A stretch of 20,975 nucleotides of DNA from a virus: the IMG/VR virus record IMGVR_UViG_3300034104_003606, positions 1 to 20,975 of that record; one strand, given 5' to 3'. A program made the position numbers and the translations under genes. How positions within the stretch are numbered: position 1 is the stretch's first letter; every line of letters begins with the position of its first letter. This document shows positions 3,670-18,159 of the stretch, one piece after another. Under the pieces are notes generated by a model that was given only the letters and a program-made list of their open reading frames with translations, made no database searches and was not told the DNA's origin.

Positions 3670-3869
3670 GCAGTGATAACAAATCTGCAAGGGCCTTTGA
3701 ATTGCAGGCCGCAAGAGTGTCCGAAAGCATGGCTAACCACAGGGAGCGTATCGAATGGCTTTCTGAGCCTGATCCGAGATGGCGCGACGGTACGCCTGTC
3801 GATTCTGCCACTCGGGCAAAGCTTTTTCGCCAAAGCCAAGCCGTACTTTCAGGGGAAGAGCCGGCATGA
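3666..3869 (+). CDS. Hypothetical 67-aa protein
   Basis: Starts at an ATG overlapping the previous stop by 4 bp. The sequence is hydrophilic and helical (SARAFELQAARVSESMANHR), followed by a short EPDPRWRDGTPVDSATRAKL stretch. No recognised domain and no cysteines, unlike the two genes that follow. Translational coupling through ATGA overlaps on both sides is the main support. Confidence 0.6.
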   Translation: MSSDNKSARAFELQAARVSESMANHRERIEWLSEPDPRWRDGTPVDSATRAKLFRQSQAVLSGEEPA

Positions 3870-4033
3870 GCAGCGACAAGGCCGCGCCGGATTGCCGTGG
3901 GTGCAAGTGGTGGGACAACGGCGTTTGCGCTACGCGGAAGGTCGCACAGATCGCGTCGGGTCGCGCTCGGGGCCCGCGCGGCGACTGCGGCCCGGTCGGC
4001 CGCTATTTCGAGCCAAAGGAGCTGCGGGGATGA
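3866..4033 (+). CDS. Cys-rich mini-protein, copy 1 of a tandem pair
   Basis: A 55-residue protein from an ATG overlapping the previous stop by 4 bp. Motifs in order are APDCRGCKWW (C10, C13), a third Cys at C21, then GDCGPVGRYFEPK (C41 and the FEPK end). Four cysteines suggest a zinc knuckle. Short phage proteins of this kind, with a CxxCxW start and a CGxxGRxFEP end, are frequent in accessory operons of proteobacterial phages; I know no function for them. The next gene is a diverged duplicate, sharing identical DNA over 38 bp near the 5' end and a near-identical 3' end. Confidence 0.7.
   Translation: MSSDKAAPDCRGCKWWDNGVCATRKVAQIASGRARGPRGDCGPVGRYFEPKELRG
3874..3911 (+). repeat. 38-bp direct repeat, copy 1
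   Basis: This stretch is identical to 4038-4075 (offset 164 bp) and encodes the shared Cys-x-x-Cys start of the two tandem mini-genes. A second block (about 3978-4021 and 4158-4201) is also nearly identical and encodes the shared C-terminus, while the middle has diverged. Confidence 0.9.
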
Positions 4034-4215
4034 CCACCGACAAGGCCGCGCCGGATTGCCGTGGGTGCAAGTGGTTTGAACCGGCTAACAGGTGCTGGCC
4101 TAGCGGTTGTGCCTGCCCGGAAGTAGCGACCTCAGTTGCATTGAGTGCACGACTGCCTCACGGCGACTGCGGCCCCTCCGGCCGCTACTTCGAGCCAAAG
4201 GAGAAAGAGCAATGA
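4030..4215 (+). CDS. Cys-rich mini-protein, copy 2 of a tandem pair
   Basis: A 61-residue paralogue of the preceding gene, ATG overlapping its stop by 4 bp. It keeps the start (DKAAPDCRGCKW, C10 and C13) and the end (GDCGPSGRYFEPKE, C47) but has a different middle with C22, C27 and C29, so the two copies may bind metal differently. The duplication includes the overlap junction itself, because both copies are offset by 164 bp and lie in different frames. Function unknown. Confidence 0.7.
   Translation: MTTDKAAPDCRGCKWFEPANRCWPSGCACPEVATSVALSARLPHGDCGPSGRYFEPKEKEQ
4038..4075 (+). repeat. 38-bp direct repeat, copy 2
   Basis: Second copy of the repeat at 3874-3911, identical at every base I compared. 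It marks a gene duplication rather than a mobile element. Confidence 0.9.
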
Positions 4216-4361
4216 TGTATGCCCGTACAGTAGTAGGCCCGCCTGTCATCATGCAGATGATCGACGAAACGGAGCGTCAGGCGTATTTTGAACAGTCTGC
4301 GCGGACGGTAGACGGGCAGCGAGCTGAATACCGGCCGCTTGAAAAGGAGGGCGAAAACTGA
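4212..4361 (+). CDS. Hypothetical 49-aa protein closing the accessory operon
   Basis: Starts at ATG 4212 (4-bp overlap with the previous stop; a second ATG follows immediately). The short product has a hydrophobic start (VVGPPVIMQMI) and an acidic rest (DETERQAYFEQSARTVDGQR). No family is recognised. It is the last coding gene before about 920 bp of tRNA-like and structured non-coding sequence, and its final codons overlap the first tRNA-like segment. Confidence 0.6.
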   Translation: MMYARTVVGPPVIMQMIDETERQAYFEQSARTVDGQRAEYRPLEKEGEN

Positions 4362-4431
4362 TAGAGTTCAGGTATTCGGACGTTGCGGGGTTGCGACCCG
4401 CTTAGGTACGCGCAGACGGTTCGATTCCGGG
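4359..4431 (+). tRNA. Degenerate tRNA-like element (anticodon TGC-like)
   Basis: A tRNA-sized segment with a plausible D arm (GTTC 4366-4369 / GGAC 4378-4381, loop with GG), a perfect 5-bp anticodon-type stem GCGGG/CCCGC with a 7-nt loop GTTGCGA (4385-4401; T at position 33, apparent anticodon TGC), and a T-arm-like TTCGATT loop (4420-4426) on a stem of which only the 3 inner pairs form. I find no acceptor stem. The gap between anticodon and T arms is long. Seen: the arms. Inferred: a decayed or highly unusual tRNA gene. Confidence 0.25.
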
Positions 4432-4457
4432 TTCGGTGGTGGTCCCACGACTGCAAA

Positions 4458-4503
4458 GGCTGAGCAGCAAGAACGCAAGCGGGTTCGACTCCCGCGACAG
4501 CCA
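4458..4503 (+). other. T arm plus partial acceptor, tRNA 3' part
   Basis: A perfect T arm (GCGGG, loop TTCGACT, CCCGC; 4479-4495) is followed by GACAGCC and A, the expected acceptor 3' strand and discriminator. The only nearby complement is GGCTG at 4458-4462, which would leave a 16-nt linker in place of the D and anticodon arms. Just upstream, CTGCAAA (4451-4457) looks like a Cys-type anticodon loop (GCA) but has no matching stem. It may be a tRNA remnant, or a minihelix-like RNA. Confidence 0.35.
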
Positions 4504-4577
4504 AGCCCCAACCGCCCGGGGCCGTCCGAAAGTTGTTTGGGGTGAATGCGTAGGCGATGCGCTACAGGCGATGGTGA

Positions 4578-4594
4578 CGGGGTTTCTAGGCCCG
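4578..4594 (+). other. Anticodon-arm-like hairpin (TCT)
   Basis: Stem CGGGG/GCCCG (4 of 5 pairs) closes the 7-nt loop TTTCTAG, with T at position 33, apparent anticodon TCT (Arg) and A at 37. No T arm follows before the next tRNA-like element begins at about 4608. It could be an isolated remnant of a tRNA 5' half or a chance hairpin. Confidence 0.2.
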
Positions 4595-4607
4595 GTGAAC
4601 AAAGCCC

Positions 4608-4678
4608 GATGATGTAGCTCAGATGGTAGAGCGGCGGCCCAAAACCGTGCGACGTGGATTCGAGTTCCACCTTCAATG
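4608..4678 (+). tRNA. Imperfect tRNA gene (Trp-like, CCA?)
   Basis: Shows a textbook D arm: TA at 4615-4616, GCTC/GAGC stem (4617-4620, 4629-4632) and loop AGATGGTA. The T arm is perfect: GTGGA, TTCGAGT, TCCAC (4654-4670). The anticodon region contains CCCAAAACCG, resembling tRNA-Trp (anticodon CCA), but C replaces the invariant T33 and the stem pairs poorly. The acceptor strands GATGATG and CTTCAAT form only 4 pairs plus one wobble of 7. No CCA is encoded. It is either a decaying tRNA or one that needs editing; the amino acid is uncertain. Confidence 0.45.
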
Positions 4679-4711
4679 CCGGGCTCGCATCCGGCCACCC
4701 CAACGTTTAAC

Positions 4712-4736
4712 CGGCCCTAGTGGCCGTAGCAATACC
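4712..4736 (+). repeat. Short repeat, copy with 9-bp insert
   Basis: CGGCCCTAG (4712-4720) and CAATACC (4730-4736) are separated here by nine bases ending in TAG. At 4815-4830 the same two blocks are directly joined. The 9-bp difference is flanked by TAG on both sides, as expected for a small slippage deletion or duplication. Confidence 0.6.
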
Positions 4737-4817
4737 GCCCACTGCGGAGCATCACCAAGGTAGGTCAAGACCTTGTGTGCTCTGGTAACTTGATCAATAG
4801 CCCTTGGCAGTGGGCGG
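4735..4817 (+). other. Long inverted repeat enclosing a hairpin (structured RNA candidate)
   Basis: CCGCCCACTGC (4735-4745) is perfectly complementary to GCAGTGGGCGG (4807-4817), 11 bp. Inside lies a second hairpin: GAGCA/TGCTC (4747-4751, 4778-4782) and CAAGGT/ACCTTG (4756-4761, 4770-4775) around an 8-nt loop. A small hairpin CGGCC-CTAGT-GGCCG (4712-4726) precedes it. There is no T tract, so it is not a simple terminator. The 3' strand lies inside the tRNA-like element at 4800-4901. Confidence 0.45.
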
Positions 4818-4901
4818 CCCTAGCAATACCCCGGCGGCGTGGATAGACACGCGACGAGGTGCAGCAAGGCGTGGAACTGGGTTCGACTCCCAGCAAGGGC
4901 C
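4800..4901 (+). tRNA. Unusually long tRNA-like element (102 nt)
   Basis: The acceptor strands GCCCTTG (4800-4806) and CAAGGGC (4894-4900) pair perfectly over 7 bp, and the T arm is perfect (CTGGG, TTCGACT, CCCAG; 4877-4893). A D-arm-like hairpin GCGT-GGATAGAC-ACGC lies at 4837-4852. However, 30 extra bases (4807-4836) separate it from the acceptor strand, and the expected anticodon arm (4853-4876) does not form a 5-bp stem. No CCA is encoded. A tRNA carrying an insertion, or a tRNA-like non-coding RNA, are both possible; no amino acid is assigned. Confidence 0.4.
4815..4830 (+). repeat. Short repeat, copy without insert
   Basis: The 16-bp joined form of the repeat at 4712-4736. It lies in the part of the 4800-4901 tRNA-like element that separates the acceptor strand from the D-arm-like hairpin, so it may have been added by a local duplication. 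Confidence 0.6.
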
Positions 4902-4997
4902 CGTGAGGCGGACAGGCCGCCAAGTTTCCGGGCTTGTGGTGACTCCACTTGCGCCGATTAGTCAGGCGTGGCCCCGGCCATACGGGGCACTAGATTC

Positions 4998-5074
4998 ATG
5001 GGATTAGCACGGTCTGGTAGTGCGCTCGGTTTGGGGCCGAGAGGTCGGGGGTTCGAATCCCTCATCCCATACCA
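4998..5074 (+). tRNA. tRNA-Pro (anticodon TGG)
   Basis: A complete cloverleaf. Acceptor ATGGGAT/ATCCCAT is 7 perfect pairs, with TA at positions 8-9. The D arm is GCAC/GTGC with loop GGTCTGGTA. The anticodon arm is CTCGG/CCGAG with loop TTTGGGG and anticodon TGG at 5032-5034. The variable loop is AGGTC, and the T arm GGGGG/CCCTC has loop TTCGAAT. The discriminator is A and CCA is encoded at 5072-5074. It reads CCA and, by wobble, other Pro codons. It is the only fully canonical tRNA in the cluster. A stable hairpin GCCCCG-GCCATA-CGGGGC (4971-4988) lies just upstream. Confidence 0.96.
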
Positions 5075-5077
5075 AAC

Positions 5078-5161
5078 AATGTGGTCCGGGTTCGATTCCC
5101 GGTGAGCATATAGAGCTTCCGCGGTGGTATGGTCATGCCGGTTCGAGTCCGGCCCGCATTG
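5078..5161 (+). tRNA. tRNA-like element with a T-arm-like hairpin in D-arm position
   Basis: Acceptor strands AATGTGG (5078-5084) and CCGCATT (5154-5160) pair over 7 bp (one G-T), with G at 73. The 3' T arm is perfect (GCCGG, TTCGAGT, CCGGC; 5137-5153). Where the D arm should be there is a second perfect T-type hairpin, CCGGG-TTCGATT-CCCGG (5086-5102). A weak anticodon-like hairpin with loop ATATAGA (5108-5114) and a 17-nt variable region would bring the total to 84 nt, the size of class II tRNAs. It starts only 3 nt after the tRNA-Pro CCA. It may be a fusion of two tRNA remnants. Confidence 0.4.
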
Positions 5162-5176
5162 TTCCACCCTACGGCC

Positions 5177-5267
5177 TCCCGCTGGGCCGGTCTTACACCG
5201 CATCCTCCCGGTGTAAGGAGAGGCGAAAGCCGCAGCGGGAACATTCAGTTCTGCGAATGGGTCGCAG
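5177..5267 (+). promoter_or_regulatory. Structured 5' leader (three-way junction plus hairpin), cis-regulatory RNA candidate
   Basis: Stem P1 TCCCGCTG/CAGCGGGA (5177-5184, 5233-5240; 8 bp) encloses two hairpins. P2 is CTTACACCG/CGGTGTAAG (5192-5200, 5209-5217; 9 bp, 8-nt loop). P3 is GGC-GAAA-GCC (5222-5231) with a GNRA tetraloop. A further hairpin CTGCGA-ATGGG-TCGCAG (5251-5267) ends 2 nt before the strong ribosome binding site AAGGAGG (5270-5276) of the gene at 5282. An alternative outer pairing TGTTCC/GGAACA (5160-5165, 5238-5243) would compete with P1. All stems are read directly; a regulatory role is inferred from placement. Confidence 0.5.
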
Positions 5268-8140: not shown

Positions 8141-8425
8141 ATGAATATTAACGGCACCCCTGAGACGCTCCCCAAGAGAGGCCCCGGCCGTCCTCCCGGG
8201 TCTGCGAATAAGATCGGCAAAGCGGCAAAAGAAGTGATTGCGCAGGCTGCGGAGGAGTTGGGCGGTTGCGATAGGTTGGTGGCGTGGGCAAAGGCCGACC
8301 CTGCCAACGAAAAGGCGTTCTGGTCGCAGATTTATCCTCGCTTGCTGCCCCTATCGGTTCAGGGCGACCCCGAAAGCCCTGTCATTGGCGCGATCACGAT
8401 TAACCATGTCAGACCTGCAGATTGA
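8141..8425 (+). CDS. Putative terminase small subunit
   Basis: A 94-residue protein immediately upstream of, and overlapping by 20 bp, the large terminase gene. The N-terminus carries an AT-hook-like basic motif KRGPGRPPGSANK (12-24), which is common in small terminase and related DNA-binding phage proteins. A helical stretch with AWAKADPANEKAFWSQIYPRL near residues 48-68 follows, and an extended tail reaches the C-terminus. It would recognise the packaging site and load the motor. It is shorter than P22 gp3 (162 residues) and not obviously its homologue, so the call rests on position and motif. Confidence 0.7.
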   Translation: MNINGTPETLPKRGPGRPPGSANKIGKAAKEVIAQAAEELGGCDRLVAWAKADPANEKAFWSQIYPRLLPLSVQGDPESPVIGAITINHVRPAD

Positions 8426-9671
8426 CATCCCGGAAAAGCTCGGATTCCTTTTCGAGCCACACCGCTATAAGGTCGCCTACGGTGGCCGTGGTGGCGGGAA
8501 GTCATGGGCGTTTGCCGACGCGTTAGAGGTTCAAGGGCTGCAGAGGCCCTTGCGTATTGGCTGTTTCCGAGAGATTCAAAAATCGATCAAGGACTCTGTC
8601 CACAAACTTCTTGCCGACAGAATCAAGAAACATAATCTCGGCTGGTTTTATGAAGTCCAGCAAACCGTAATTCGTGGCCAGAACGGGACTGAGTTTTTGT
8701 TTGCTGGGCTGCAGGATCACACGGTTGACTCGATCAAGTCATACGAAGGCATTGACATCGCGTGGGTCGAAGAGGGGCAGGCGGTAAGTAAGCGTAGCTG
8801 GGACATCCTGATTCCAACCATCCGAAAGGATGGCTCTGAAATTTGGGTGAGCCTTAACCCCGAGTTGGATACAGACGAGACGTGGGTGAGGTTCATTGCT
8901 AACCCGCCCACGGACTCTGTCGTTGTATCGGTCAACTACCGGGATAACCCTTGGTTCCCTCCCGTTCTGGAGCGCGAGCGTTTGGACGCACTGGCTAGGA
9001 TGCCGAAAGCTGATTATGAAAATATATGGGAGGGGAAATGTCGCCCCGCTGTTTCCGGCGCCATCTATGCGGACGAAGTTGCAAAAGCCGAAGAGGAAGG
9101 GCGATTTAACCTTGTCCCTTACGATCCGAGCCTTAAAGCGCATGTCGTTTTCGACCTCGGGTGGAACGACAAGATGGCTGTGGGTATTGTGCAACGCCAT
9201 GTCTCTAGCCTTAGGGTAATCAAGTACATTGAAGATGACCACAAGACGCTTGATTGGTACTCTGATGCGCTTAGGCAGCTGCGGTACAACTGGGGGACTG
9301 TGTACCTACCTCATGATGGCGCGCATGGCGACTACAAGACCGGGAAAAGCGCAAGGCAATGGCTAGAGGGGCTTGGCTGGCGCGTTGAGTTTGCTCCTAA
9401 CCAACCGGTCGAAACTGGAATTAAGAATGCGCGCATGGCATTTGGCCAGCTGTACGTCGACAAAAGCGAGTGCGCGCGCTTGATCCAGTGCCTCCGTCGC
9501 TATCGCCGAAAAGTTCCGACAACGACAGGCGAGGCGTCGTCGCCGTTGCATGACGAATGGAGCCATGGCGCCGATATGTTCAGGTACATGGCATTGTGCG
9601 CGCCGCAAATGACTAACGATGCGGATAGCTTCGACCTCAGCAGCTTTAACCCGGTGTCGGAATGGGCATGA
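8406..9671 (+). CDS. terL: Terminase large subunit (PBSX-type)
   Basis: A 421-residue packaging ATPase/nuclease. The start is ATG 8406; an earlier in-frame start at 8238 would cover most of the small subunit gene. Walker A is GGRGGGKS (26-33), Walker B IDIAWVEE (116-123) and the coupling motif SLNP (149-152). The C-terminal RNase H-like nuclease has D250 (FDLGWND), D304 (LPHDGAHGD) and the acidic pair D383/D390 in HDEWSHGADMFRY. The motor pumps DNA into the prohead through the portal and cuts the concatemer. The sequence style is that of Terminase_3/PBSX family enzymes rather than P22 gp2 itself. It overlaps the portal gene by a few bases. Confidence 0.96.
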   Translation: MSDLQIDIPEKLGFLFEPHRYKVAYGGRGGGKSWAFADALEVQGLQRPLRIGCFREIQKSIKDSVHKLLADRIKKHNLGWFYEVQQTVIRGQNGTEFLFAGLQDHTVDSIKSYEGIDIAWVEEGQAVSKRSWDILIPTIRKDGSEIWVSLNPELDTDETWVRFIANPPTDSVVVSVNYRDNPWFPPVLERERLDALARMPKADYENIWEGKCRPAVSGAIYADEVAKAEEEGRFNLVPYDPSLKAHVVFDLGWNDKMAVGIVQRHVSSLRVIKYIEDDHKTLDWYSDALRQLRYNWGTVYLPHDGAHGDYKTGKSARQWLEGLGWRVEFAPNQPVETGIKNARMAFGQLYVDKSECARLIQCLRRYRRKVPTTTGEASSPLHDEWSHGADMFRYMALCAPQMTNDADSFDLSSFNPVSEWA

Positions 9672-11896
9672 CCAAGAAAAAGACCGCGTCTGACCCCATG
9701 CAGCCGATGCGCAAGCGTTATGACTTGTGCGTTGACGCCGACCGGGAGAACCGCGACACGGCGGCGGAGGACTGGCGTTTCCTGACCGTTCGGGGCGCGC
9801 AATGGGAAGATGCTTGGCGCCTGCGTCGAGGCAATCGGCCGTGCTATGAATTCCCGGTCCTTCGCGCTCACTGGCGCCAAGTCGTTAACGATCAAAAGCG
9901 GGCCAGACCGTCGATCAAGGTCCGTCCTGTCGAGAATGGAGACGCCAAGGGCGCAGAGCTTCGCGCCGGAATCTTGAAGAATATCGAGCAAACGAGCAAC
10001 GCGGACCGCGCTTATGACTCGGCATTCGAGTACTTGACGGCTGTCGGGTTTGGCGCGTGGCTGGTGACAACCCGCTACACTGCTAACGACGCATGGGATC
10101 AGGACTTGGCGATTGAGCCAATCGATGACCCGATTAACTCGGTCTGGATCGATCCTGATAATCACGATGATCCGTCTTTCGGGTTCATCGAGCGGACCTA
10201 TTCCCGCAGCGCGTTTGAAGCGATGTACCCGGACGCAAGGGTGGTCAGCTTTGACGCCGCCCGCAGGACAAGCCTTGTTTCTTGGTTCGGCGAGGATCAG
10301 GTTCGCGTTGTCGCCTACTATCGCAAGGTCCCGTATAAGTGCGAGATTGCGCTACTGAGTGACGGCCGGTCGGTTGATATGGCCGAGATAGTTGACGCCA
10401 TAGACGAGCTGGAGGCGCAAGGCGTCACCGTCCAGAAAACCCGCGTGACGACTAAGCACAAGGTCATCATGTCCATCTGCTCAGGGGCAGAGGAGATTGA
10501 CGGCCCGCATGAGACGGTTTTTCACCGCATCCCGATTGTGTGCGTGTGGGCCAACAAGCAAAAGTTTGAAGGCAAGTGGACGTGGTGCGGCATGGTGCGA
10601 TGGGCCAAAGACGCCCAGCGGATGCTTAACTATAACCTGACCACTGCGCAGGAAGCCGTCGCCAAGGTGCCGAAGGTTCCTTACATGGTCACTGCAAAGA
10701 TGCTAGAGGGCCCGGGCATAAAGGCCAAATGGGAGCGCGCAGCAGCAGAGGACCCGATATTCCTGCCGTACACTCCCGACCCTATGGCGCCGGGCAATAG
10801 GCCGATTCGTGAGCCGATGCCGGATGTGCCGGTGACGTTCTTGCAACTGTCGGAAGTCGGCGTTGACATGCTCAAGTCTGCGAACGGCATACATGATGCG
10901 TCGCTCGGCGCCCGCTCGAATGAGACCAGCGGGAGGGCAATTCTTGCGCGGCAGCAGGAAGGCGACACGGCGACGTTTGACTATCAGGACCACTTGAGTA
11001 ACGGGATTCGCAAAACCGGCGAAATCCTTGTGTCGGCGCTGCCAAAGGTTTATGACACTCAGCGCACGATCCGAATCATCGGCAAGGACGGGGCCGAGAA
11101 ACTGGAGACGCTATATCAGGAGGTTATGGATCGTCAGACGGGGCGCCCTGTCAAGATCAATGACCTGTCCGCAGGAAAGTATGACGTGACCGTGTCGTCT
11201 GGCCCCAGCTATGACACCCTCCGCATGGAGTTCGTCGACGCGCTGACGCAGCTTGGGCAGGGGAACCCGATGATTGCTCAGGCGGTCCCTGACCTGATCG
11301 TCAAGGCGCTTGACTTCCCGGGGGCGGATGAAGCCGCAGAGCGGTTGAAAATGCTGCTGCCGCCGCCGATACAGCAGCAGCTTTCGGAGGGCAAGGAATT
11401 GCCGCCAGAGGCCATGCAGGCCATGCAGCAGGCGCAGATGATGATGGAGCAAGCGCAGCAGCAGCAGCAGATGCTAGAGCAGGCCGCGCAGCAGGTTGCG
11501 CAGGAAAAGGCGGCGACCGACGCAGAGAAGCAGCAGATTGCGGCGGACAAGGCCCTGCTGGACGCCAATTTCAAGCGCATGCAGGCCGAATTGAAGGCCG
11601 CTCAGCTTGAGGCGAGCATGTCGCAGGGGGCGAAACAGGAAGAATTGGATACCAGAGAAGCGACGGTGTCCGATTCAGAGCAGAGAAATGAGGGCGAATC
11701 AGCCGCGATGCTGGCCGCTCAAGCCTTGATTGAGCAGGCCGCCACCCTGTTGGCGCAACAGTCCGCGATGATGGAACAAATGACTGTGATGTTGTCCGAG
11801 TTGTCTAGGCCTACGGCAAAGACCATGCAGGTGATTCGAGACCAGTCCGGCCGAGTGGTCGGCGCTGAAATTGTGGAGGCCGTGAATGGCGCTTGA
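9668..11896 (+). CDS. P22-type portal protein
   Basis: About 742 residues, similar to P22 gp1 (725). Two starts are possible: ATG 9662 and ATG 9668. The second gives the 4-bp overlap with the terminase stop that is usual in this window, with GGA 6 nt upstream. The N-terminal region (KRYDLCVDADRENRDTAAED) and the following wing/stem region fit the P22 portal family, which forms the dodecameric ring for packaging and tail assembly. The C-terminal 170 residues are Gln-rich coiled coil with a run of CAG-type codons near 11452-11471. This matches the helical barrel that projects into the head in P22. The end overlaps the next gene by 11 bp. Confidence 0.93.
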   Translation: MTKKKTASDPMQPMRKRYDLCVDADRENRDTAAEDWRFLTVRGAQWEDAWRLRRGNRPCYEFPVLRAHWRQVVNDQKRARPSIKVRPVENGDAKGAELRAGILKNIEQTSNADRAYDSAFEYLTAVGFGAWLVTTRYTANDAWDQDLAIEPIDDPINSVWIDPDNHDDPSFGFIERTYSRSAFEAMYPDARVVSFDAARRTSLVSWFGEDQVRVVAYYRKVPYKCEIALLSDGRSVDMAEIVDAIDELEAQGVTVQKTRVTTKHKVIMSICSGAEEIDGPHETVFHRIPIVCVWANKQKFEGKWTWCGMVRWAKDAQRMLNYNLTTAQEAVAKVPKVPYMVTAKMLEGPGIKAKWERAAAEDPIFLPYTPDPMAPGNRPIREPMPDVPVTFLQLSEVGVDMLKSANGIHDASLGARSNETSGRAILARQQEGDTATFDYQDHLSNGIRKTGEILVSALPKVYDTQRTIRIIGKDGAEKLETLYQEVMDRQTGRPVKINDLSAGKYDVTVSSGPSYDTLRMEFVDALTQLGQGNPMIAQAVPDLIVKALDFPGADEAAERLKMLLPPPIQQQLSEGKELPPEAMQAMQQAQMMMEQAQQQQQMLEQAAQQVAQEKAATDAEKQQIAADKALLDANFKRMQAELKAAQLEASMSQGAKQEELDTREATVSDSEQRNEGESAAMLAAQALIEQAATLLAQQSAMMEQMTVMLSELSRPTAKTMQVIRDQSGRVVGAEIVEAVNGA

Positions 11897-12944
11897 TTCG
11901 CTGGTGGCAAAGGGCAACACCGGAGCCGGCACGGACGCGCTTGCGGGCCGTCAGACGGGCGGCGGGTTTGTGGGCGCGGTCATGCTGACTGATGCCACTG
12001 GGGCCGAGGTGGACGGGGCGAATCCTGTTCCGGTCGAGGTCCAGAACCCCGCACTGCAGACCATCGCAGACAGGACGCTAGCGCCGGGGCAGGCAGTGAT
12101 GGCTTCGTCGTCCCCGGTCGTGATTGCCTCGAATCAGTCTGCGATTCCTGTCGCCCTGCCGAACATGACGACGGCGAACTATTCGCAGGCGGGCGCAATA
12201 TCGATCAATACCGACCTGATCGTTTTGGACTGCCAAGGTCTGGAGGGCGTTTCGATCCAGTGCGTCAGCATGGGCACGTCCGGGGTTGTGACTCCGGCAT
12301 GGTCGAATGACGGGGCAACCTACGTAGCGGCCACGATCATGACCCCTGCGGGGGCCGCGGCCACCACATTCAACGCCGCCGGGCTTTGGACAACCCCTGT
12401 GCTCGCGCGATTCCTCCGACTGCGGCTGACCACTGCGGCGACCGCGGGGACAACTTCGCTGCAGGTTCGCGGCGCAGTTCAGGCGTCCAATTACCCTGTT
12501 GCGGCCCAGCCGATCAGCGGGACTGTTTCGATTTCTGGCGCTCCCACCCTTGGGGCGGGGTCTAACCTTGCCGCAGACTTCGGCCTGCAGGCGAGAGCAA
12601 ACGCGACAGGCGCGGCGGCGGTCGCCAAGGTTGCCAGCGCAGCAAGCACCAACGCGACGAGCGTCAAGGCTTCCGCGGGGCGCGTCCTTGGCTGGCAGCT
12701 GACAAACACGACGGCCGCGGTCAAAGTTGTGCGTCTTTACAACCTCGCCTCAGCGCCGACGGTTGGGACATCGGTTCCGGTTTACAATATCGTGTTGCCG
12801 GCGAATGCAAGCATTAGTGCATCATTCCCGGTTGGGATTGGCCATGCGGCAGGAATCTCATACGCGATCACCAACGCGATTGCAGACCTTGACGCGACCG
12901 CGGTATCCGCTAACGACGTAATCGGAGCGATTTACTACGCATGA
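11886..12944 (+). CDS. Beta-rich virion protein, putative head decoration/fibre
   Basis: A 352-residue protein rich in Ala, Thr, Ser and Val, with few charges. After an N-terminal GNTGAGTDALAG turn it has a segment (NPVPVEVQNPA at about 46-56), then a beta-sandwich-like domain (about 95-200, with ARFLRLRLTTAATAGTTSLQV). A C-terminal domain (about 255-352) ends with YNIVLPANASISASFP...GAIYYA. Such proteins occur as head decoration or capsid fibre proteins in several phages. In P22 the scaffold gene directly follows the portal, so this gene is extra in the order. The surface role is inferred from composition and position. Confidence 0.6.
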   Translation: MALDSLVAKGNTGAGTDALAGRQTGGGFVGAVMLTDATGAEVDGANPVPVEVQNPALQTIADRTLAPGQAVMASSSPVVIASNQSAIPVALPNMTTANYSQAGAISINTDLIVLDCQGLEGVSIQCVSMGTSGVVTPAWSNDGATYVAATIMTPAGAAATTFNAAGLWTTPVLARFLRLRLTTAATAGTTSLQVRGAVQASNYPVAAQPISGTVSISGAPTLGAGSNLAADFGLQARANATGAAAVAKVASAASTNATSVKASAGRVLGWQLTNTTAAVKVVRLYNLASAPTVGTSVPVYNIVLPANASISASFPVGIGHAAGISYAITNAIADLDATAVSANDVIGAIYYA

Positions 12945-13321
12945 TTACGCTTTGGCTCGCAACCGGCTTGCTGAGTGGCGAAGAACAGCCCGCGACTCAG
13001 ATTGTGGGCGGCTGGGGGCTTGGTGTTCGCAGGAAAAAGGTATCGAAAGCGGTTAAGGAGGAGGCCGAGCGTCAAGCGGCCGAGGCCTTGGCCGCATTTG
13101 AGGAGCAAGAGCGACAGCAGTACCTAGCCCGGCTGGATGAGTTGCTGAAAATGCAGCCGATTCCGGCCGATATGGACGCAAGATTGATCGCCCTGACTGC
13201 GCAAAACGCGGTCAGGGCCCTGATCGAAGAACTTGCAGCAGAGTTTGACCGTTACATGGCGCGTCTTGAGTTCGAGAGAGACGAAGAAGAAGCGGTGATT
13301 TTCCTGTTGCTCGCAGCGTGA
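12941..13321 (+). CDS. Charged helical hypothetical protein between portal and scaffold
   Basis: A 126-residue protein, ATG overlapping the previous stop by 4 bp. A short hydrophobic N-terminal part (LWLATGLLSG) precedes GWGLGVRRKK, then a long Glu/Ala/Gln-rich helix (residues 35-70) and a second helix (about 80-120) ending hydrophobic (VIFLLLAA). It looks like a small coiled-coil assembly factor or minor head component. It is not recognised. The next 46 bp hold the two hairpins of the scaffold leader. Confidence 0.6.
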   Translation: MITLWLATGLLSGEEQPATQIVGGWGLGVRRKKVSKAVKEEAERQAAEALAAFEEQERQQYLARLDELLKMQPIPADMDARLIALTAQNAVRALIEELAAEFDRYMARLEFERDEEEAVIFLLLAA

Positions 13322-13326
13322 CCGAA

Positions 13327-13363
13327 CCGGACGGCTTCCGGGCTAAATCATCCTTGGAGGATG
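13327..13363 (+). promoter_or_regulatory. Scaffold leader hairpins, second one holding the Shine-Dalgarno
   Basis: Hairpin I is CCGGA-CGGCT-TCCGG (13327-13341). Hairpin II is CATCC-TTGGA-GGATG (13349-13363); its loop and 3' stem contain the ribosome binding site GGAGG (13356-13360) for the scaffold ATG at 13368. Folding of hairpin II would reduce ribosome access. P22 scaffold synthesis is known to be autoregulated after transcription, so this leader is a sensible place for such control. That link is inference. Confidence 0.45.
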
Positions 13364-13367
13364 CGCA

Positions 13368-14138
13368 ATGAGTGGTATCGAAAACGCCGAAAATGGCGCA
13401 GTGGTCGAAAAAACCGAGGCTCCGGCACCGGTAAGTTCCGACGCGACCGCGGAGCAGACTCAGGACCAGAAGGAACGCGACGATAAAGGTCGCTTCGTCC
13501 CTCAAGAGCGAGTCAATGAAATCACCCGTGCCCGGCGGCAAGCCGAGCGCGAGCGCGACGAGTTGCGTCAGCAGCTTGAATTCATGCGGAGTCAAACCCC
13601 GCAGCCCCAGCAACAGGCCGGAATCCCTGATCCGTCAGAACTTGGGTGGGATTTGCAGCAGTGGGGCAAGGCACTGACGGAAAACGTATCGCGCACCGCC
13701 TACGAACAAGCGCAGGCGCAGATTAGGCAAGAGCAGCAGCAGGCATATGAAGCGCAGTTGCTACAGCAGTTTGAGGCCCGGGAACAGGCCTTTGCGTCTC
13801 AAAGCCCGGGCTATTTCGACCGCGTCCAGTCCCTTATGGGGACCGTAAATTTTAATCCAGCTGTTGGCGAGATTTTGGCGACATCCGATCACGGACCCGC
13901 CGTTTTGGATTATCTCGCTCAGCACTTGGACGAAGCGGATCGCATTTCTCGACTGCCGCCGCATATGGCCGCTGCACAGATCGGGCGCATCGAGGCGAAA
14001 GTCTCCGCGCCGAAAACCAAACCCGTATCCAACGCCCCCGCGCCGGTTCCGACGCTTGGCGGTGGAGCGAGGTCAACTAAACCCGTTGGCGAAATGACCT
14101 ATGAAGAATACAAGGCATATCGCCAACAGAGCAATTGA
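13368..14138 (+). CDS. Scaffolding protein
   Basis: A 256-residue, very hydrophilic, Gln/Glu/Arg-rich helical protein just upstream of the coat gene, as in P22 gene 8 (303 residues). The N-terminus is acidic and disordered, then KGRFVPQERVNEITRARRQA starts a long coiled coil with many Gln repeats (to about residue 145). A Pro-rich linker (around 210-235) leads to a short C-terminal helix (MTYEEYKAYRQ), which would contact coat protein. It should direct coat assembly into proheads and leave before DNA fills the head. Strong GGAGG before the start, but in a hairpin. The call rests on gene position and composition more than on sequence match. Confidence 0.85.
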   Translation: MSGIENAENGAVVEKTEAPAPVSSDATAEQTQDQKERDDKGRFVPQERVNEITRARRQAERERDELRQQLEFMRSQTPQPQQQAGIPDPSELGWDLQQWGKALTENVSRTAYEQAQAQIRQEQQQAYEAQLLQQFEAREQAFASQSPGYFDRVQSLMGTVNFNPAVGEILATSDHGPAVLDYLAQHLDEADRISRLPPHMAAAQIGRIEAKVSAPKTKPVSNAPAPVPTLGGGARSTKPVGEMTYEEYKAYRQQSN

Positions 14139-14148
14139 GGACTGAGAA

Positions 14149-15360
14149 ATGCCGAATTCACTTATCACCCCTAGCATCATTGCCAAGGAAACGCTCATGC
14201 AGGTTGAAAACAACCTTGTCATGGGCAAGCTGGTTCACCGCGAGTACAAGGACGAATTTGTCAAGGTTGGCTCTACAGTCAACGTCAGGAAGCCTGTGCG
14301 ATTTGTCGCATCTGATGGCGCGACCCGCGTTAATCAGGACGTGCAGGAAGCCAACACTCCGTTCACCATCGACAAGCGCAAGCATGTGTCGTGGAAGTTC
14401 AGCACTCACGACCTGACGATGACAATTGAGGAGTACAGCGAGCGGTATATCCGTCCCGCTGCAATCGCGCTTGCTAACCAGATCGACGCGGATTTGTGTG
14501 CGCTTTACCGCGGCATCTTTCACTATGTCGGTACCGCCGGGACGACTCCGGCAACGTATGCGCAGATCGGCGCCCCTAGCGTTCGGCTGGATAATGCCGC
14601 GGTTCCTGCGGAGGATCGCCGCTTGGTGCTCAATCCGGAAGGCGCCTTCAATGTCTCGGACATGTTGAAGTCGCTTTATAACCCGGAGCTTGTCAAGGGC
14701 GCCATTCGCGGCCGGTCCATGGGCCCTATCGCGAACATGGATACCTACATGGACCAGAACATCCGTAGGCACACTGTCGGAACGTGGGGCACAACTCCGC
14801 TTGTTAACGGTGCGTCGCAAAGCGTGACCTATGCGAACGCTTCGCACGCCTACGGCAGCACGTCGCAGACGTTGAATATTGATGGCCTTACCGTCACGAC
14901 TGGAACATGCCTTTCGGGCGATCGGTTCACCATCGCAGGCGTCTTTGCCGTCAACCCGGTAAGCAAGGAAGCCCTCGCGACGCTGCAGGAGTTTGTTGTG
15001 CAGGCAGACGCGACGGCGAACGGAAGCGGGCAGGCTGCAATTACGATCTCTCCCGCAATCATCACTTCCGGCCCGTTCCAGACGGTGAGCGCCGCCCCTG
15101 CGGATAATGCGGCGATCACTCGCGTCTCCAGCAATTACGTTGCGAACCTTGCGTTTCACAAAAACGCCTTCGGTCTTGTTACGTGCCCGCTGGAGCTTCC
15201 GGACGGTGCGGCGTTCAAGGCGAGAGAAACGCACAACGGCTATTCCGTGCGCGTCGTGAAGGATTACGACATTGACACGGATGAGGACATCATCCGAATT
15301 GACACGCTTTATGGTGTCAAGACGCTTTATCCCGAGCTTGCTGCGATTCTTATGGGCTGA
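14149..15360 (+). CDS. Major capsid protein (P22 coat family)
   Basis: A 403-residue protein, slightly shorter than P22 coat gp5 (430). The N-terminal arm MPNSLITPSIIAKETLMQ and the following LVHREYKDEFVKVGSTVNVRKP are characteristic of the P22-type coat family, with an HK97 fold. A loop/domain rich in Thr, Ala and Ser at about residues 220-340 occupies the position of the P22 I-domain (telokin-like insertion). The C-terminus ends YGVKTLYPELAAILMG. It forms the icosahedral shell and interacts with the upstream scaffold protein. RBS GAGGA precedes the ATG. The opposite strand has a 532-codon open frame, which I regard as an artefact of GC-rich codon use. Confidence 0.95.
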   Translation: MPNSLITPSIIAKETLMQVENNLVMGKLVHREYKDEFVKVGSTVNVRKPVRFVASDGATRVNQDVQEANTPFTIDKRKHVSWKFSTHDLTMTIEEYSERYIRPAAIALANQIDADLCALYRGIFHYVGTAGTTPATYAQIGAPSVRLDNAAVPAEDRRLVLNPEGAFNVSDMLKSLYNPELVKGAIRGRSMGPIANMDTYMDQNIRRHTVGTWGTTPLVNGASQSVTYANASHAYGSTSQTLNIDGLTVTTGTCLSGDRFTIAGVFAVNPVSKEALATLQEFVVQADATANGSGQAAITISPAIITSGPFQTVSAAPADNAAITRVSSNYVANLAFHKNAFGLVTCPLELPDGAAFKARETHNGYSVRVVKDYDIDTDEDIIRIDTLYGVKTLYPELAAILMG

Positions 15361-15369
15361 TGAAAAACG

Positions 15370-15404
15370 GGAGGGGAGGTTAGCGCCTCCCCTCCTCCGG
15401 AGGC
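15370..15404 (+). promoter_or_regulatory. Coat/gp4 intergenic hairpin with alternative pairing to the SD
   Basis: GGAGGGGAGG (15370-15379) pairs perfectly with CCTCCCCTCC (15386-15395) around a 6-nt loop, a 10-bp stem starting 10 nt after the coat stop. There is no T tract, so it is not a classical terminator; it could stabilise coat mRNA or attenuate. An alternative 6-bp hairpin, GCCTCC (15385-15390) with GGAGGC (15399-15404), would bury the ribosome binding site GGAGG of the next gene. The two folds exclude each other. Confidence 0.55.
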
Positions 15405-15408
15405 AGGA

Positions 15409-15789
15409 ATGATCGCAAGCGAAATCACGACACAATCGCTCCGAGTCCTTGGCGTGATTGCCATTGGTGAAACGGCGAGGGCCGAGGACTCGGCGACTGC
15501 GCTTGAGTACTTGAATGACATGCTGGCGGAATGGCACGTTGACGAGGTGGGGCTGCCCGAGTACAGCGCGGAAACGCTTTCCAGCGAGTTGAATATCGGG
15601 AGGGAGGACAAGACTGCAATTGCACTGCAGCTTGCCGTGCGCCTTGCCCCAGAGTACGGGATGACGCTCGGCCTCGACGTGCTGTCGCGTGCCGAATCTT
15701 CCATGGAGGCGTTGCGCAAGCGGTATTTCGCGATTGCTCCGGCAGACTACGGGCACCTTCCCGGAGTCCGAAACGGTTGTAGTGAATGA
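15409..15789 (+). CDS. P22 gp4-like head-tail adaptor
   Basis: A 126-residue protein after coat, in the position of P22 gene 4 (166 residues). Recognisable pattern: ASEITTQSLRVLGVIAIGE (3-21), ATALEYLNDMLAEW (30-43), then DKTAIALQLAVRLAPEYG (67-84) and a final RYFAIAPADYG. P22 gp4 binds below the portal ring and provides the site for gp10, closing the head after packaging. The shorter length means the C-terminal extension of P22 gp4 is missing or replaced. Its SD lies in the alternative hairpin above. Its stop overlaps the next ATG by 4 bp. Confidence 0.88.
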   Translation: MIASEITTQSLRVLGVIAIGETARAEDSATALEYLNDMLAEWHVDEVGLPEYSAETLSSELNIGREDKTAIALQLAVRLAPEYGMTLGLDVLSRAESSMEALRKRYFAIAPADYGHLPGVRNGCSE

Positions 15790-17186
15790 AAACGAACTTT
15801 CTAGGCCCTGCGTACAAAGCGCGGTCCCTAAAGCTATCGGCGCAAACGCGGGTTAACCTGCTGTTTGAGCCGCCGGCCCCCGGATCGGCCGGAGACGGAA
15901 TGCTATTCCAGCGTCCGGGCAGGGTGCTATGGGCGACTGTAGGCGATGGCCCGCTGCGCGGGGGGCGCGTGTTTTCCGGCTTCGGCTGGATTGTTTCAGG
16001 GAGCCAGCTTTTTAGAGTTGACGCATCTGGGAATTCTACGCTTGTCGGGACGGTTCCCGGAAGCGGCCGAGTGACGATCGAGGCAAACGACACTCAAGTC
16101 GTGGTGATGCATTCCGAAGGCTGGAATGTCGTCACGCTCGCGACGCTCGCATACGCGGCGGTCCCCGACTCTCCGACAACTGCCCAAGGGTGCTACTTGG
16201 GAACGCGGATTTTCTTCCCGAACAGTAACGGCACGTATGGATGGACCGAAGTGGGGCAGGCGGCGACGCTAGACGCTCTGAACTTTGCATCTGCAGAGTC
16301 GAGGACCGACCCTGTGATTGCCTGCTACAGTGATAAGCGTGAGCTTTTGGTGTTTGGAAGCGAGTCTGCGGAGTGGTACTTGGAGACAGGCGACCCGGAT
16401 CAGCCAGTGCAAAGAACATCCGTGTCTGAGTACGGGCTAGCGGCCAAATACTCGATTGCCTCCGAAGACAACACGGTTTTCTACCTGGGGTGGAACGAAA
16501 ACGGCGACCCAAGGGTGTTTAAAATCGTGGGCAGCGCGCCTGTCAGCGTGTCTGACTTCGCGATTGAAAGCGACATTGCGAAGTACGGAAACGTATCGGA
16601 AGCTTACGGATTCACATACCACTATGACGGCCACCCTGTTTATGTCCTGACTATCCCGGACGGGGTGACTTGGGTGTATGACATCGCGACTCAGCAGTGG
16701 TCCCAGTTCGCAGACTGGGATGATGGCGACCTTAAGCCGTGGTCTGCGCTATTTCATCTGAAATTAGGCGGCAGCCATATCGTCGCGGACACGACTACAA
16801 ACAAGCTTTTCAGGCTTGACAAAGGCACTTTTTCAGATGGCGGGAATCCGCTATACTGGGAGCGTGCTTTTACGCATATCGAGGCGGAGGGCGTGAATAT
16901 CAGGTTCAACGCGCTGCAATTGTTCGCAGAAATGGGCGTCGGGCTTGACGGTAGTCCGCTCGTTGGCGCCGATCCGGTTGTTGCGCTTCGGTGGTCAGAT
17001 GATGGCGGGCTCTCTTTCCCCAGTTACCGAGAACTAAAACTGGGCAAAATCGGCGAGCATCGCAACCGCGCGATAACTTCACGCCTCGGCATGTCTCGCC
17101 ATCGTGTTTTCAAGCTTTCCGGGACTGACCCGGTGCCTGTCCGGCTGTTTGGCGTTTCACTGGATGCGGAGGCCTTGACTAAATGA
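15786..17186 (+). CDS. P22 gp10-like packaged DNA stabilization protein
   Basis: 466 residues, close to P22 gp10 (472). The N-terminal GPAYKARSLKLSAQTRVNLL is the family start. The middle has repeated beta blades, with LVFGSESAEWYLETGDPDQP near 188-207, RTSVSEYGLAAKYSI, and VTWVYDIATQQWSQF near 293-307. The C-terminal part has LRWSDDGGLSFPSYRELKLG. In P22 gp10 forms a hexameric tail hub that stabilises packaged DNA and carries the tailspikes and needle. Starts by a 4-bp overlap with the gp4-like gene, as expected for a coupled tail-assembly unit. Confidence 0.92.
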   Translation: MKTNFLGPAYKARSLKLSAQTRVNLLFEPPAPGSAGDGMLFQRPGRVLWATVGDGPLRGGRVFSGFGWIVSGSQLFRVDASGNSTLVGTVPGSGRVTIEANDTQVVVMHSEGWNVVTLATLAYAAVPDSPTTAQGCYLGTRIFFPNSNGTYGWTEVGQAATLDALNFASAESRTDPVIACYSDKRELLVFGSESAEWYLETGDPDQPVQRTSVSEYGLAAKYSIASEDNTVFYLGWNENGDPRVFKIVGSAPVSVSDFAIESDIAKYGNVSEAYGFTYHYDGHPVYVLTIPDGVTWVYDIATQQWSQFADWDDGDLKPWSALFHLKLGGSHIVADTTTNKLFRLDKGTFSDGGNPLYWERAFTHIEAEGVNIRFNALQLFAEMGVGLDGSPLVGADPVVALRWSDDGGLSFPSYRELKLGKIGEHRNRAITSRLGMSRHRVFKLSGTDPVPVRLFGVSLDAEALTK

Positions 17187-17770
17187 GCAGCGCGAGCCCA
17201 TCTGCCAAGCGCGACATGCTGAATGCCTTGTCAATCGATACGATGAAGCTGCATAGCGGCTACCCCGGCCTGACGGGCGCGAACGAAGTTTCCGGTGGGT
17301 CTCCGGCGTACGCAGCGAAAGCGTGCAGCTTCGCCTTTTCTTCGGCTGGAGAGCCCCGGGCGCTTTCCGGCTCCGTAGTTTTTGATGTTCCTGCGGTCTC
17401 GGTTCTTTGGGCCTCCATCTGGACCGGATCAACAATCCGTTTTATTGCCCCGACCGGCGGTGACCCCGTCGAGTTTTCGGCGGACCTGACTGCAAACACG
17501 ATCAAGGTTCCCGCGCATGGGTATGCCAACAATGACACAGTTGTTTTCTTCTCATCCTCTCCGCCTTCTCCGCTGGTAGCCGGGACGATTTATTACGTGG
17601 TCAACGCGACTACGGATGATTTTCAGGTGTCCGCGACATCCGGAGGGGGTGCGATCAATATCACGACCAATGCGTCCCCTGATTGTCTGGTGTCGAAGAT
17701 CGCGCCCCGCGTGTACGCAGCGCAGGATACGCATACAGTCGGCTCCTACACCTTCGGGCTCCCTTACTGA
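17183..17770 (+). CDS. Phage tail/fibre-associated structural protein with an inserted beta module
   Basis: A 195-residue protein, ATG overlapping the gp10-like stop by 4 bp. The segment YPGLTGANEVSGGSPAYAAK (27-46) and VVFDVPAVSVLWASIW (65-80) belong to a widespread small phage tail-fibre/adaptor type. Residues about 101-165 (NTIKVPAHGYANNDTVVFF, then GTIYYVVNATTDDFQVSATS) match a beta-sandwich module found in many phage virion proteins. The C-terminal VYAAQDTHTVGSYTFG completes the first domain. So it appears to be a two-part protein with a module inserted. It is not a P22 gene; a virion role is inferred from its place after gp10. Confidence 0.7.
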   Translation: MSSASPSAKRDMLNALSIDTMKLHSGYPGLTGANEVSGGSPAYAAKACSFAFSSAGEPRALSGSVVFDVPAVSVLWASIWTGSTIRFIAPTGGDPVEFSADLTANTIKVPAHGYANNDTVVFFSSSPPSPLVAGTIYYVVNATTDDFQVSATSGGGAINITTNASPDCLVSKIAPRVYAAQDTHTVGSYTFGLPY

Positions 17771-18147
17771 TGGCGACGGACAATTACATTGCGAGAGTCG
17801 GAACCGCGGCGACCGCTGGCACCGCGAATTGGGCGACGAGGCCGGCGCGCAAGGGGCTAACGGGCTGGCTTCCGCCCAGGAATACGCCCATGGCTCCCGG
17901 GCTTCCCCCGATGGGCAGAGAATACAGGATGGCGCTTGAAACGCTGTTTCAGCGGATCGGCGGCATCCTAGACGCATCCGTCCCCGAAGTCGCGGGGTCA
18001 GTCTCATTAGTGCAGACGGCCGTTCTTGAGGCGCAAGCGGCTGCGACAGCGGCGCAGGCGGTCGCCAGCGCAAACACGCTATCGATCGATGCGATTCGAG
18101 AAGTGGCGATTAACAATAACCTTGACGGGTCGGAAAACATCCCGTGA
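17770..18147 (+). CDS. Small coiled-coil structural protein at the needle position
   Basis: A 125-residue protein. The ATG at 17770 overlaps the preceding TGA by one base (TGATG); an upstream in-frame start (17683) lies inside the previous gene. The N-terminal half is Pro/Gly-rich (TGWLPPRNTPMAPGLPPMG), the C-terminal half is an Ala/Gln/Val-rich helix (about residues 68-110) that suggests an oligomeric coiled coil. In P22 the tail needle gene 26 (233 residues, trimeric coiled coil) lies at this point; this protein is half that size and has no recognisable needle sequence. It could be a short plug or needle analogue, or unrelated. Confidence 0.55.
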   Translation: MATDNYIARVGTAATAGTANWATRPARKGLTGWLPPRNTPMAPGLPPMGREYRMALETLFQRIGGILDASVPEVAGSVSLVQTAVLEAQAAATAAQAVASANTLSIDAIREVAINNNLDGSENIP

Positions 18148-18159
18148 GGAGAATTATCT

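What the first reader, a model, noticed from the sequence alone, without database searches (positions are those of the whole stretch)
4359..5161. An array of tRNA-like elements in which only one is canonical
Seven TTCGA-type T-loop hairpins occur within 800 bp; five apart from tRNA-Pro have perfect 5-bp stems and one (4415-4431) is partial. Only the tRNA-Pro at 4998-5074 makes a full cloverleaf. The others keep T arms but have missing or mismatched acceptor, D or anticodon arms, and extra anticodon-like hairpins lie between them (4385-4401, 4578-4594, 4971-4988). If these were simply decaying, T arms should decay as well. Selective keeping of T-arm/acceptor-like parts raises the idea of minihelix or decoy RNAs, or of fragmented tRNAs; random decay and recombination of a phage tRNA cluster is the sober alternative.
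Basis: partly seen in the sequence, partly recalled or inferred. Interest (0 to 1): 0.72.

Follow-up and report, generated by a model that had tools for sequence, protein, structure and literature searches.

The report
Phage tRNA-shaped RNAs with swappable inserts
The odd tRNA look-alikes in this phage are not broken tRNA genes: at least one belongs to a large, apparently unnamed family of phage RNAs that keep a tRNA-shaped shell and swap the middle part freely, which suggests that phages use a tRNA disguise to carry many different RNA cargoes.

Summary
Six perfect T-arm hairpins lie on one strand within about 680 bp (0.009 expected), and ARAGORN calls only tRNA-Pro. Decay is not the explanation. 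The element at 4536-4704 has an acceptor-like stem, a D-arm and a T-arm whose loops are complementary, and an insert where the anticodon arm should be. The same scaffold recurs in over 100 phage contigs, in E. coli prophages and in phage P1, with covarying stems and 137 different inserts of 12-240 nt. In the window and seven relatives the insert is a second tRNA-like domain; 24 of 45 consensus pairs there show double-sided changes among eight sequences. Another insert type mimics 16S rRNA helix 11. Relatives of the window phage carry the same odd array beside intact tRNAs. The nearest known RNA is the prophage sRNA STnc100, which on reading has the same layout; the window element has no Rfam match except a generic tRNA hit to the nested domain. 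The structure is well supported. The function (tRNA-shaped carriers of exchangeable RNA effectors) is inferred. The other elements of the array (4361-4504, 4800-4900, 5076-5162) are less certain, but the last is conserved in two relatives.

The parts
4536..4704 (+). tRNA-like scaffold RNA: acceptor-like stem 4536-4544 / 4696-4704, AAT linker 4545-4547, D-arm, insert 4563-4677, T-arm
   Evidence: Structure scan; 49.8 bits with model R1 (the window is one of the model's 37 training sequences); RNAfold and RNAalifold recover the outer stem and both arms
4548..4562 (+). D-arm GCGT-AGGCGAT-GCGC; loop GCGA is complementary to TCGC of the T-loop (elbow contact)
   Evidence: Compensatory loop change GCTGAT/ATCAGC to GCGA/TCGC, also in L095, L202 and L316
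4678..4695 (+). Scaffold T-arm GCCGG-GCTCGCAT-CCGGC, stacked directly on the acceptor 3' strand
4574..4600 (+). Conserved CTAG hairpin (GTGACGGGGTTTCTAGGCCCGGTGAAC) that opens the nested-type insert
   Evidence: Same core in 7 IMG/VR contigs, Pseudomonas phage Marin and Cyanophage Cy-LDV1
4606..4677 (+). Second tRNA-like domain nested in the scaffold's insert: D-arm GCTC..GAGC, short anticodon-like arm without U33, T-arm 4654-4670, weak acceptor
   Evidence: Rfam tRNA 36.3 bits for 4608-4678; nested acceptor, anticodon stem and T-stem covary in A2
4699..4736 (+). Conserved spacer with hairpin CGGCC-CTAGT-GGCCG (4712-4726) followed by TAGCAATACC
   Evidence: 95% identical in L005; core also in L299 and L300
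4735..4817 (+). Hairpin module with 11-bp perfect terminal stem CCGCCCACTGC/GCAGTGGGCGG; occupies the slot that holds a tRNA-like in L316 and other sequence in L005
   Evidence: Inverted repeat I6; fold -40.9 kcal/mol; slot comparison
4800..4900 (+). tRNA-like remnant or element: acceptor GCCCTTG/CAAGGGC (7/7), tRNA-Leu-like D region GCGTGGATAGACACGC 4837-4852, T-arm 4877-4893, no anticodon arm
   Evidence: Weak mascRNA match of 25.2 bits, below its cut-off of 42.5; segment 4822-4853 is 100% conserved in L005. RNAfold prefers another pairing here; boundaries uncertain
4971..4988 (+). Hairpin GGCCCCGGCCATACGGGGC
   Evidence: Same hairpin in L300 at 678
4998..5074 (+). Canonical tRNA-Pro (TGG)
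   Evidence: ARAGORN; Rfam 59.4 bits
5076..5162 (+). tRNA-like element: acceptor ACAATGTGG/CCGCATTGT (9 bp, one G-U), T-arm 5137-5153, variable interior that here holds a second T-arm hairpin (5086-5102)
   Evidence: Acceptor kept in L300 and L316 with wholly different interiors; R1 score not significant (2.3 bits)
4459..4504 (+). Minimal element: GGCTG/CAGCC stem around T-arm 4479-4495
   Evidence: Sequence and RNAfold; no relative found, so evidence is weak
4361..4440 (+). Degenerate tRNA-Ala(TGC)-like piece: D-like arm, anticodon-like arm GCGGG-GTTGCGA-CCCGC 4385-4401, partial T-arm 4415-4431
   Evidence: Read from the sequence; RNAfold does not recover the cloverleaf; may be true decay

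Best explanation
The array encodes structured non-coding RNAs. Its best-defined unit (4536-4704) is a tRNA-shaped scaffold: an acceptor-like stem, a D-arm and a T-arm joined by a loop-loop contact at the elbow, with the anticodon arm replaced by a freely exchanged insert. Shown by comparative analysis: the scaffold structure, the insert variability, the nesting of a second tRNA-like domain in the insert, and same-strand association with phage tRNA genes. Inferred: the RNAs are transcribed with the tRNA cluster or a late/leader transcript, the tRNA-like shell lets host tRNA enzymes (RNase P and 3' processing) cut out and protect the RNA, and the insert acts in trans. For STnc100/PasD-like relatives the likely mode is base-pairing; for the tRNA-like and 16S-like inserts the likely mode is mimicry or sequestration of a factor that binds tRNA or rRNA, plausibly including host defence nucleases.
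For: Structure: in an acceptor-blind test 155 of 191 D-arm matches have the T motif within 300 nt (2.2% of random windows do), and 143 of 155 have all four outer acceptor pairs, against 60 on average (maximum 71) after shuffling partners. Alignment A1: 13 pairs with double-sided change against 6.8 shuffled; covariation 0.302 against 0.122, 0 of 500 shuffles; every slid register fails. D-loop/T-loop complementarity changes in step. Inserts: 137 distinct, 12-240 nt. Nested insert: 24 of 45 pairs with compensatory change in eight sequences. 16S helix 11 mimic: E 1.3e-7 against E. coli 16S nt 243-282, and an Rfam SSU match. Context: 40 of 181 elements within 1 kb of a tRNA (16 expected, maximum 24), 67 nearby tRNAs on the same strand and 3 opposite; a terminator within 200 nt downstream in 43 of 155 (48 of 775 random windows). 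P1 carries two copies after trnT. PasD and STnc100 are reported as related prophage sRNAs with different seeds and targets (PMC13192938).
Against: No expression, processing or phenotype data were found for the window or for R1 members. No encoded CCA is evident at a fixed position. The main subtype's T-loop (AGATCAGCA) is not a canonical T-loop, and the linker is AAT rather than UA. Only one of the window's non-canonical elements (4536-4704) is firmly in the family; 4361-4504 could be genuine decay. P1 guides over plp/upl, the antisense ORFs beside and partly over the P1 elements, score as non-essential (PMC10695390).
Confidence: 0.6

Rival explanations
1. Cis-acting leader or processing signals: the tRNA-like folds mark cleavage sites (tRNA punctuation) or shape leaders of the downstream genes, and the inserts are mere spacers.
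For: Elements often lie in leaders just upstream of a start codon, between Q and holin, or in the Pban-tci-ban leader of P1; the arrays alternate with real tRNAs.
Against: Inserts themselves keep structure with compensatory changes and one copies a 16S helix, which spacers need not do. About a quarter are followed by a terminator. Contexts differ from phage to phage.
Confidence: 0.22
2. Specifically decoys for defence systems that cut or sense tRNA: the nested tRNA-like with an abnormal anticodon arm soaks up an anticodon nuclease or a tRNA sensor.
For: Nested tRNA-likes keep the D- and T-arms but have abnormal anticodon loops; guides over the adjacent P1 ORFs show no effect on a lab host, as expected of an accessory trait.
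Against: No link to any defence system was tested; most inserts are not tRNA-like (9 of 137 contain a T-arm).
Confidence: 0.15
3. Random decay and recombination of a phage tRNA cluster.
For: 4361-4440 and the Leu-like piece at 4837-4900 do resemble broken tRNAs.
Against: The same non-canonical elements recur with covariation in unrelated phages; relatives show the odd elements beside intact tRNAs; acceptor and T-stem are kept while the interior is replaced.
Confidence: 0.05
4. A DNA-level mobile or recombination element (attC-like cassette) with conserved ends and a variable interior.
For: Conserved ends and variable interiors; the same insert in different surroundings.
Against: Strong strand bias relative to neighbouring tRNAs (67 to 3); stem-preserving changes and G-U pairs point to RNA.
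Confidence: 0.05

Closest known systems
STnc100 (Rfam RF02076) and PasD prophage sRNAs
   Same: STnc100 has the same layout on reading..GTG + AAT + D-like hairpin (CCCCC..GGGG), variable insert, T-like hairpin CCGGG-AGGCA-CCCGG, CAC.. closing stem with compensatory changes. The reported PasD context near antitermination protein Q matches some members. The P1 element at 70078-70201 is matched weakly by both models.
   Different: Different D- and T-loop sequences; R1 does not find STnc100 and RF02076 does not find the window. The tRNA-like reading was not found in the literature that could be searched. No nested tRNA. PasD sequence itself was not examined.
YrlA / bacterial Y RNAs (RF02553)
   Same: Non-coding RNA that mimics tRNA and also occurs in phages (own knowledge).
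   Different: No Rfam match in the window; YrlA is tied to Ro60 (own knowledge).
tmRNA
   Same: tRNA-like ends (acceptor, D, T) with the anticodon region replaced by a long insert.
   Different: No tmRNA call and no Rfam tmRNA match.
mascRNA/menRNA (RF01684)
   Same: Acceptor, degenerate D-arm and T-arm without a proper anticodon arm; weak match to 4800-4900.
   Different: Score 25.2 is below the cut-off of 42.5; a eukaryotic RNA family.
Engineered tRNA scaffold (Ponchon and Dardel; own knowledge)
   Same: A cargo RNA is placed where the anticodon arm was, so that a tRNA shell protects it.
   Different: Artificial; the phage family would be a natural counterpart.

Membership tests
R1 scaffold family defined here | Acceptor-like stem ending in GTG/CAC, with at least 7 pairs | tested here: met
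   TGGGGTG/CACCCCA, 7 of 7
R1 scaffold family defined here | AAT linker, 4-bp D-arm with AGG.. loop, 5-bp T-arm, complementary loops | tested here: met
   D-loop AGGCGAT with T-loop GCTCGCAT
tRNA | Cloverleaf with a 7-nt anticodon loop and U33 | tested here: not met
   ARAGORN rejects everything but tRNA-Pro; the nested domain passes the Rfam cut-off but lacks U33
tRNA | Encoded or added 3' CCA and aminoacylation | not testable with these tools
   No fixed CCA after the acceptor in the family
STnc100 (RF02076) | Rfam gathering score of 47 bits | tested here: not met
   No match in the window
STnc100 (RF02076) | GTG-AAT-D-hairpin-insert-T-hairpin-CAC layout | tested here: met
   Read in four STnc100-type sequences and in the window
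STnc100 (RF02076) | 3' intrinsic terminator | not tested
   Terminators downstream were counted for the family but not for the window itself
YrlA | Match to RF02553 | tested here: not met
YrlA | Ro60 gene nearby | not tested
   No Ro60 family search was run
tmRNA | ARAGORN or Rfam tmRNA call | tested here: not met
mascRNA-menRNA (for 4800-4900) | Rfam gathering score | tested here: not met
   25.2 against 42.5 bits

The most novel reading that the evidence does not exclude
Phages own a general-purpose natural tRNA scaffold: a fixed tRNA-shaped shell into which unrelated RNA effectors (tRNA mimics, rRNA helix mimics, antisense seeds) are swapped, strung in arrays among real tRNA genes and used against host RNA-binding factors or defences. 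STnc100 and PasD would be two known products of this platform.
Probability: 0.4. Interest if true: 0.93.

Novelty: new variant of a known kind. Interest (0 to 1): 0.78.

Why it matters
If right, what looks like tRNA debris in phage genomes is a modular RNA platform that tRNA scanners and Rfam largely miss. It occurs in phage P1 (69817-69918 and 70078-70201), so the question can be tested at once in a standard laboratory system. It would join two scattered prophage sRNA families (STnc100, PasD) under one architecture and offer a catalogue of natural cargoes, including a 16S rRNA helix and tRNA mimics, that may reveal host factors and defences targeted by phages.

Tried and rejected
Decay was tested by looking at relatives and rejected for the main elements. 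The spacer pattern AGCAATACCCCGGCGGC gave 8 further contigs, and those read as unrelated sequence in apparent coding regions. An exact pattern for the window's D-arm subtype found nothing in IMG/VR; only L095, L202 and L316 share that subtype. E. coli K-12 MG1655 lacks the element upstream of yfdP; lambda, P22, HK97 and T4 lack R1 matches. No E. coli genome matches the nested type. Among inserts compared with E. coli rRNA, only the helix 11 type stood out; the shuffled control gave 13 chance hits at E<0.01 in 20 rounds, so weaker matches were ignored. Encoded CCA was looked for and not found at a fixed place. Literature searches (10, open-access only) found no description of the scaffold (among them).

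Full report
OBSERVATION. The window carries six perfect T-arm hairpins on the + strand, starting at 4479, 4654, 4877, 5047, 5086 and 5137. Simulation of the region expects 0.009. ARAGORN calls only tRNA-Pro 4998-5074; the Rfam tRNA model adds 4608-4678 at 36.3 bits. The finding is confirmed.

FIRST LEAD. A blastn search tied window 4543-4671 to unannotated DNA in Pseudomonas phage Marin and Cyanophage Cy-LDV1. These phages share a hairpin GTGACGGGGTTYCTAGGCCC followed by a tRNA-like domain that ARAGORN does not call. An exact pattern found it in seven more viral contigs. Identical arrangements in unrelated phages argue against local decay.

THE SCAFFOLD. The flanks of these elements proved far more widespread than their middle: GTGAATGCGCAGGCTGATGCGC at the 5' side and GCCGGAGATCAGCACCGGCCAC at the 3' side. 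A structure scan reads them as tRNA-like: acceptor-like stem, AAT, 4-bp D-arm, insert, 5-bp T-arm directly on the acceptor 3' strand. The D-loop GCTGAT is complementary to the T-loop ATCAGC. In the window, L095, L202 and L316 both loops differ together (GCGA with TCGC), with 7 of 7 acceptor pairs in each although the acceptor sequences differ.

STATISTICS. Because the scan itself required pairing, an acceptor-blind test was run: 155 of 191 D-pattern matches have a T motif within 300 nt (88 of 3980 random windows), and 143 of the 155 have all four outer acceptor pairs, against a mean of 60 and a maximum of 71 with shuffled partners. On a 37-sequence alignment, 93.2% of cells pair (83.8% shuffled), 13 pairs change on both sides (6.8), the covariation score is 0.302 (0.122), and all slid registers fail. 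Sequences are related by descent, so these shuffles are not probabilities. Model R1 built from this alignment finds the scaffold in several terminase relatives of the window phage, L014, L016, L020, L023 and L044. Its hit in the window (49.8 bits) is by construction, since the window was one of the training rows.

INSERTS. 137 distinct inserts of 12-240 nt were seen; 9 contain a T-arm. The nested type (window, L004 and six other loci) has a consensus with 45 pairs, 24 with double-sided changes, including the nested acceptor, anticodon stem and T-stem. In L202 ARAGORN calls a tRNA-Pro inside the insert. A second insert type matches E. coli 16S rRNA nt 243-282 (E 1.3e-7; Rfam SSU 38.1 bits), and a third version of it lies in another E. 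coli locus. A 145-nt insert shared by Rahnella, Pantoea, Pseudocitrobacter and a phage also keeps its fold, with few double changes.

CONTEXT. Elements lie after tRNA-Asn and tRNA-Thr in P1-like plasmids, between Q and holin in a lambdoid prophage, and upstream of yfdP in an E. coli prophage. One type gives matches in 1585 of 5426 E. coli genomes, 813 covering most of the query. Phage P1 itself has two. Of 181 elements 40 are within 1 kb of a tRNA (16 expected); 67 neighbouring tRNAs are on the same strand and 3 opposite. A terminator follows within 200 nt in 43 of 155. R1 hits occur in 3 of 200 genomes of the phylum and 6 of 248 of the order under strict filters.

THE REST OF THE ARRAY. Relatives L005, L299/L316 and L300/L318 carry the spacer with CCCTAGTGGCCGTAGCAATRCC. 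L316 shows scaffold, spacer, a tRNA-like that reads as having a 3-nt anticodon loop, a further element, the CAATGCGG..CCGCATTG element, a second scaffold, and then intact tRNA-Pro and tRNA-Gln. The element at 5076-5162 keeps its acceptor in L316 and L300 with different interiors. The slot between the two AGCAATACC repeats holds a strong hairpin in the window, a tRNA-like in L316 and other sequence in L005. The elements at 4361-4504 have no relatives and may be decay.

WHAT IS KNOWN. Rfam 15 has no family at its cut-off for the scaffold. STnc100 was the surprise: it matches the second P1 element at 33.4 bits, below its cut-off, and full STnc100-type sequences read as the same layout with other loop sequences. 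A 2026 preprint reports that PasD and STnc100 probably share a common origin but have different seeds and targets (PMC13192938). That fits a constant shell with a changing effector. The literature search covered open-access papers only.

FUNCTION. The structural claim is strong. The claims of transcription as discrete RNAs, processing by tRNA enzymes and action in trans are inferences. In P1, guides over the antisense ORFs plp and upl score as non-essential on a laboratory host (PMC10695390), so any role is accessory or conditional.

Noticed in passing
L012, L014, L019-L021, L023, L032, L036, L040, L047, L050, L052-L054 (about 730 nt upstream of the terminase in several): Terminase relatives of the window phage carry amber-suppressor tRNAs (CUA anticodon, CCA present) near the 3' end of an ORF (checked in L020, L050, L053); in L020 that ORF continues past an in-frame TAG where L032 has a sense codon, suggesting TAG recoding.
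   Followed up: partly
window 8403-20597 and other main ORFs: 24 of 27 main ORFs end in TGA, 2 in TAG and 1 in TAA; no suppressor tRNA is called in the window.
   Followed up: partly
window 3779-4215: Two tandem, similar small Cys-containing ORFs (..DKAAPDCRGCKW..GDCGP.GRYFEPKE) lie just upstream of the array.
   Followed up: no
window 4958-5203 (-) and P1 69472-70041 (-): ORFs antisense to tRNA or T-arm DNA (RDSNPRP-type peptide in the window; plp and upl in P1) may be spurious gene calls.
   Followed up: partly
L331 1000-1700 (P1): P1 has further long stems around T-arm-like loops (GGTAAGGGTA..TACCCTTACC with GAGGGTTCGAATCCCTA; AAGAGCATTC..GAATGCTCTT) between trnT and tciA.
   Followed up: no
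L302 780-900: A version of the 16S helix 11 mimic sits inside a different closing stem, opposite an ORF annotated as a zinc-binding protein.
   Followed up: no
L297 1479-1667 and L100 2538-2726: Known phage RNAs C4 and isrK lie a few kb from scaffold elements.
   Followed up: no
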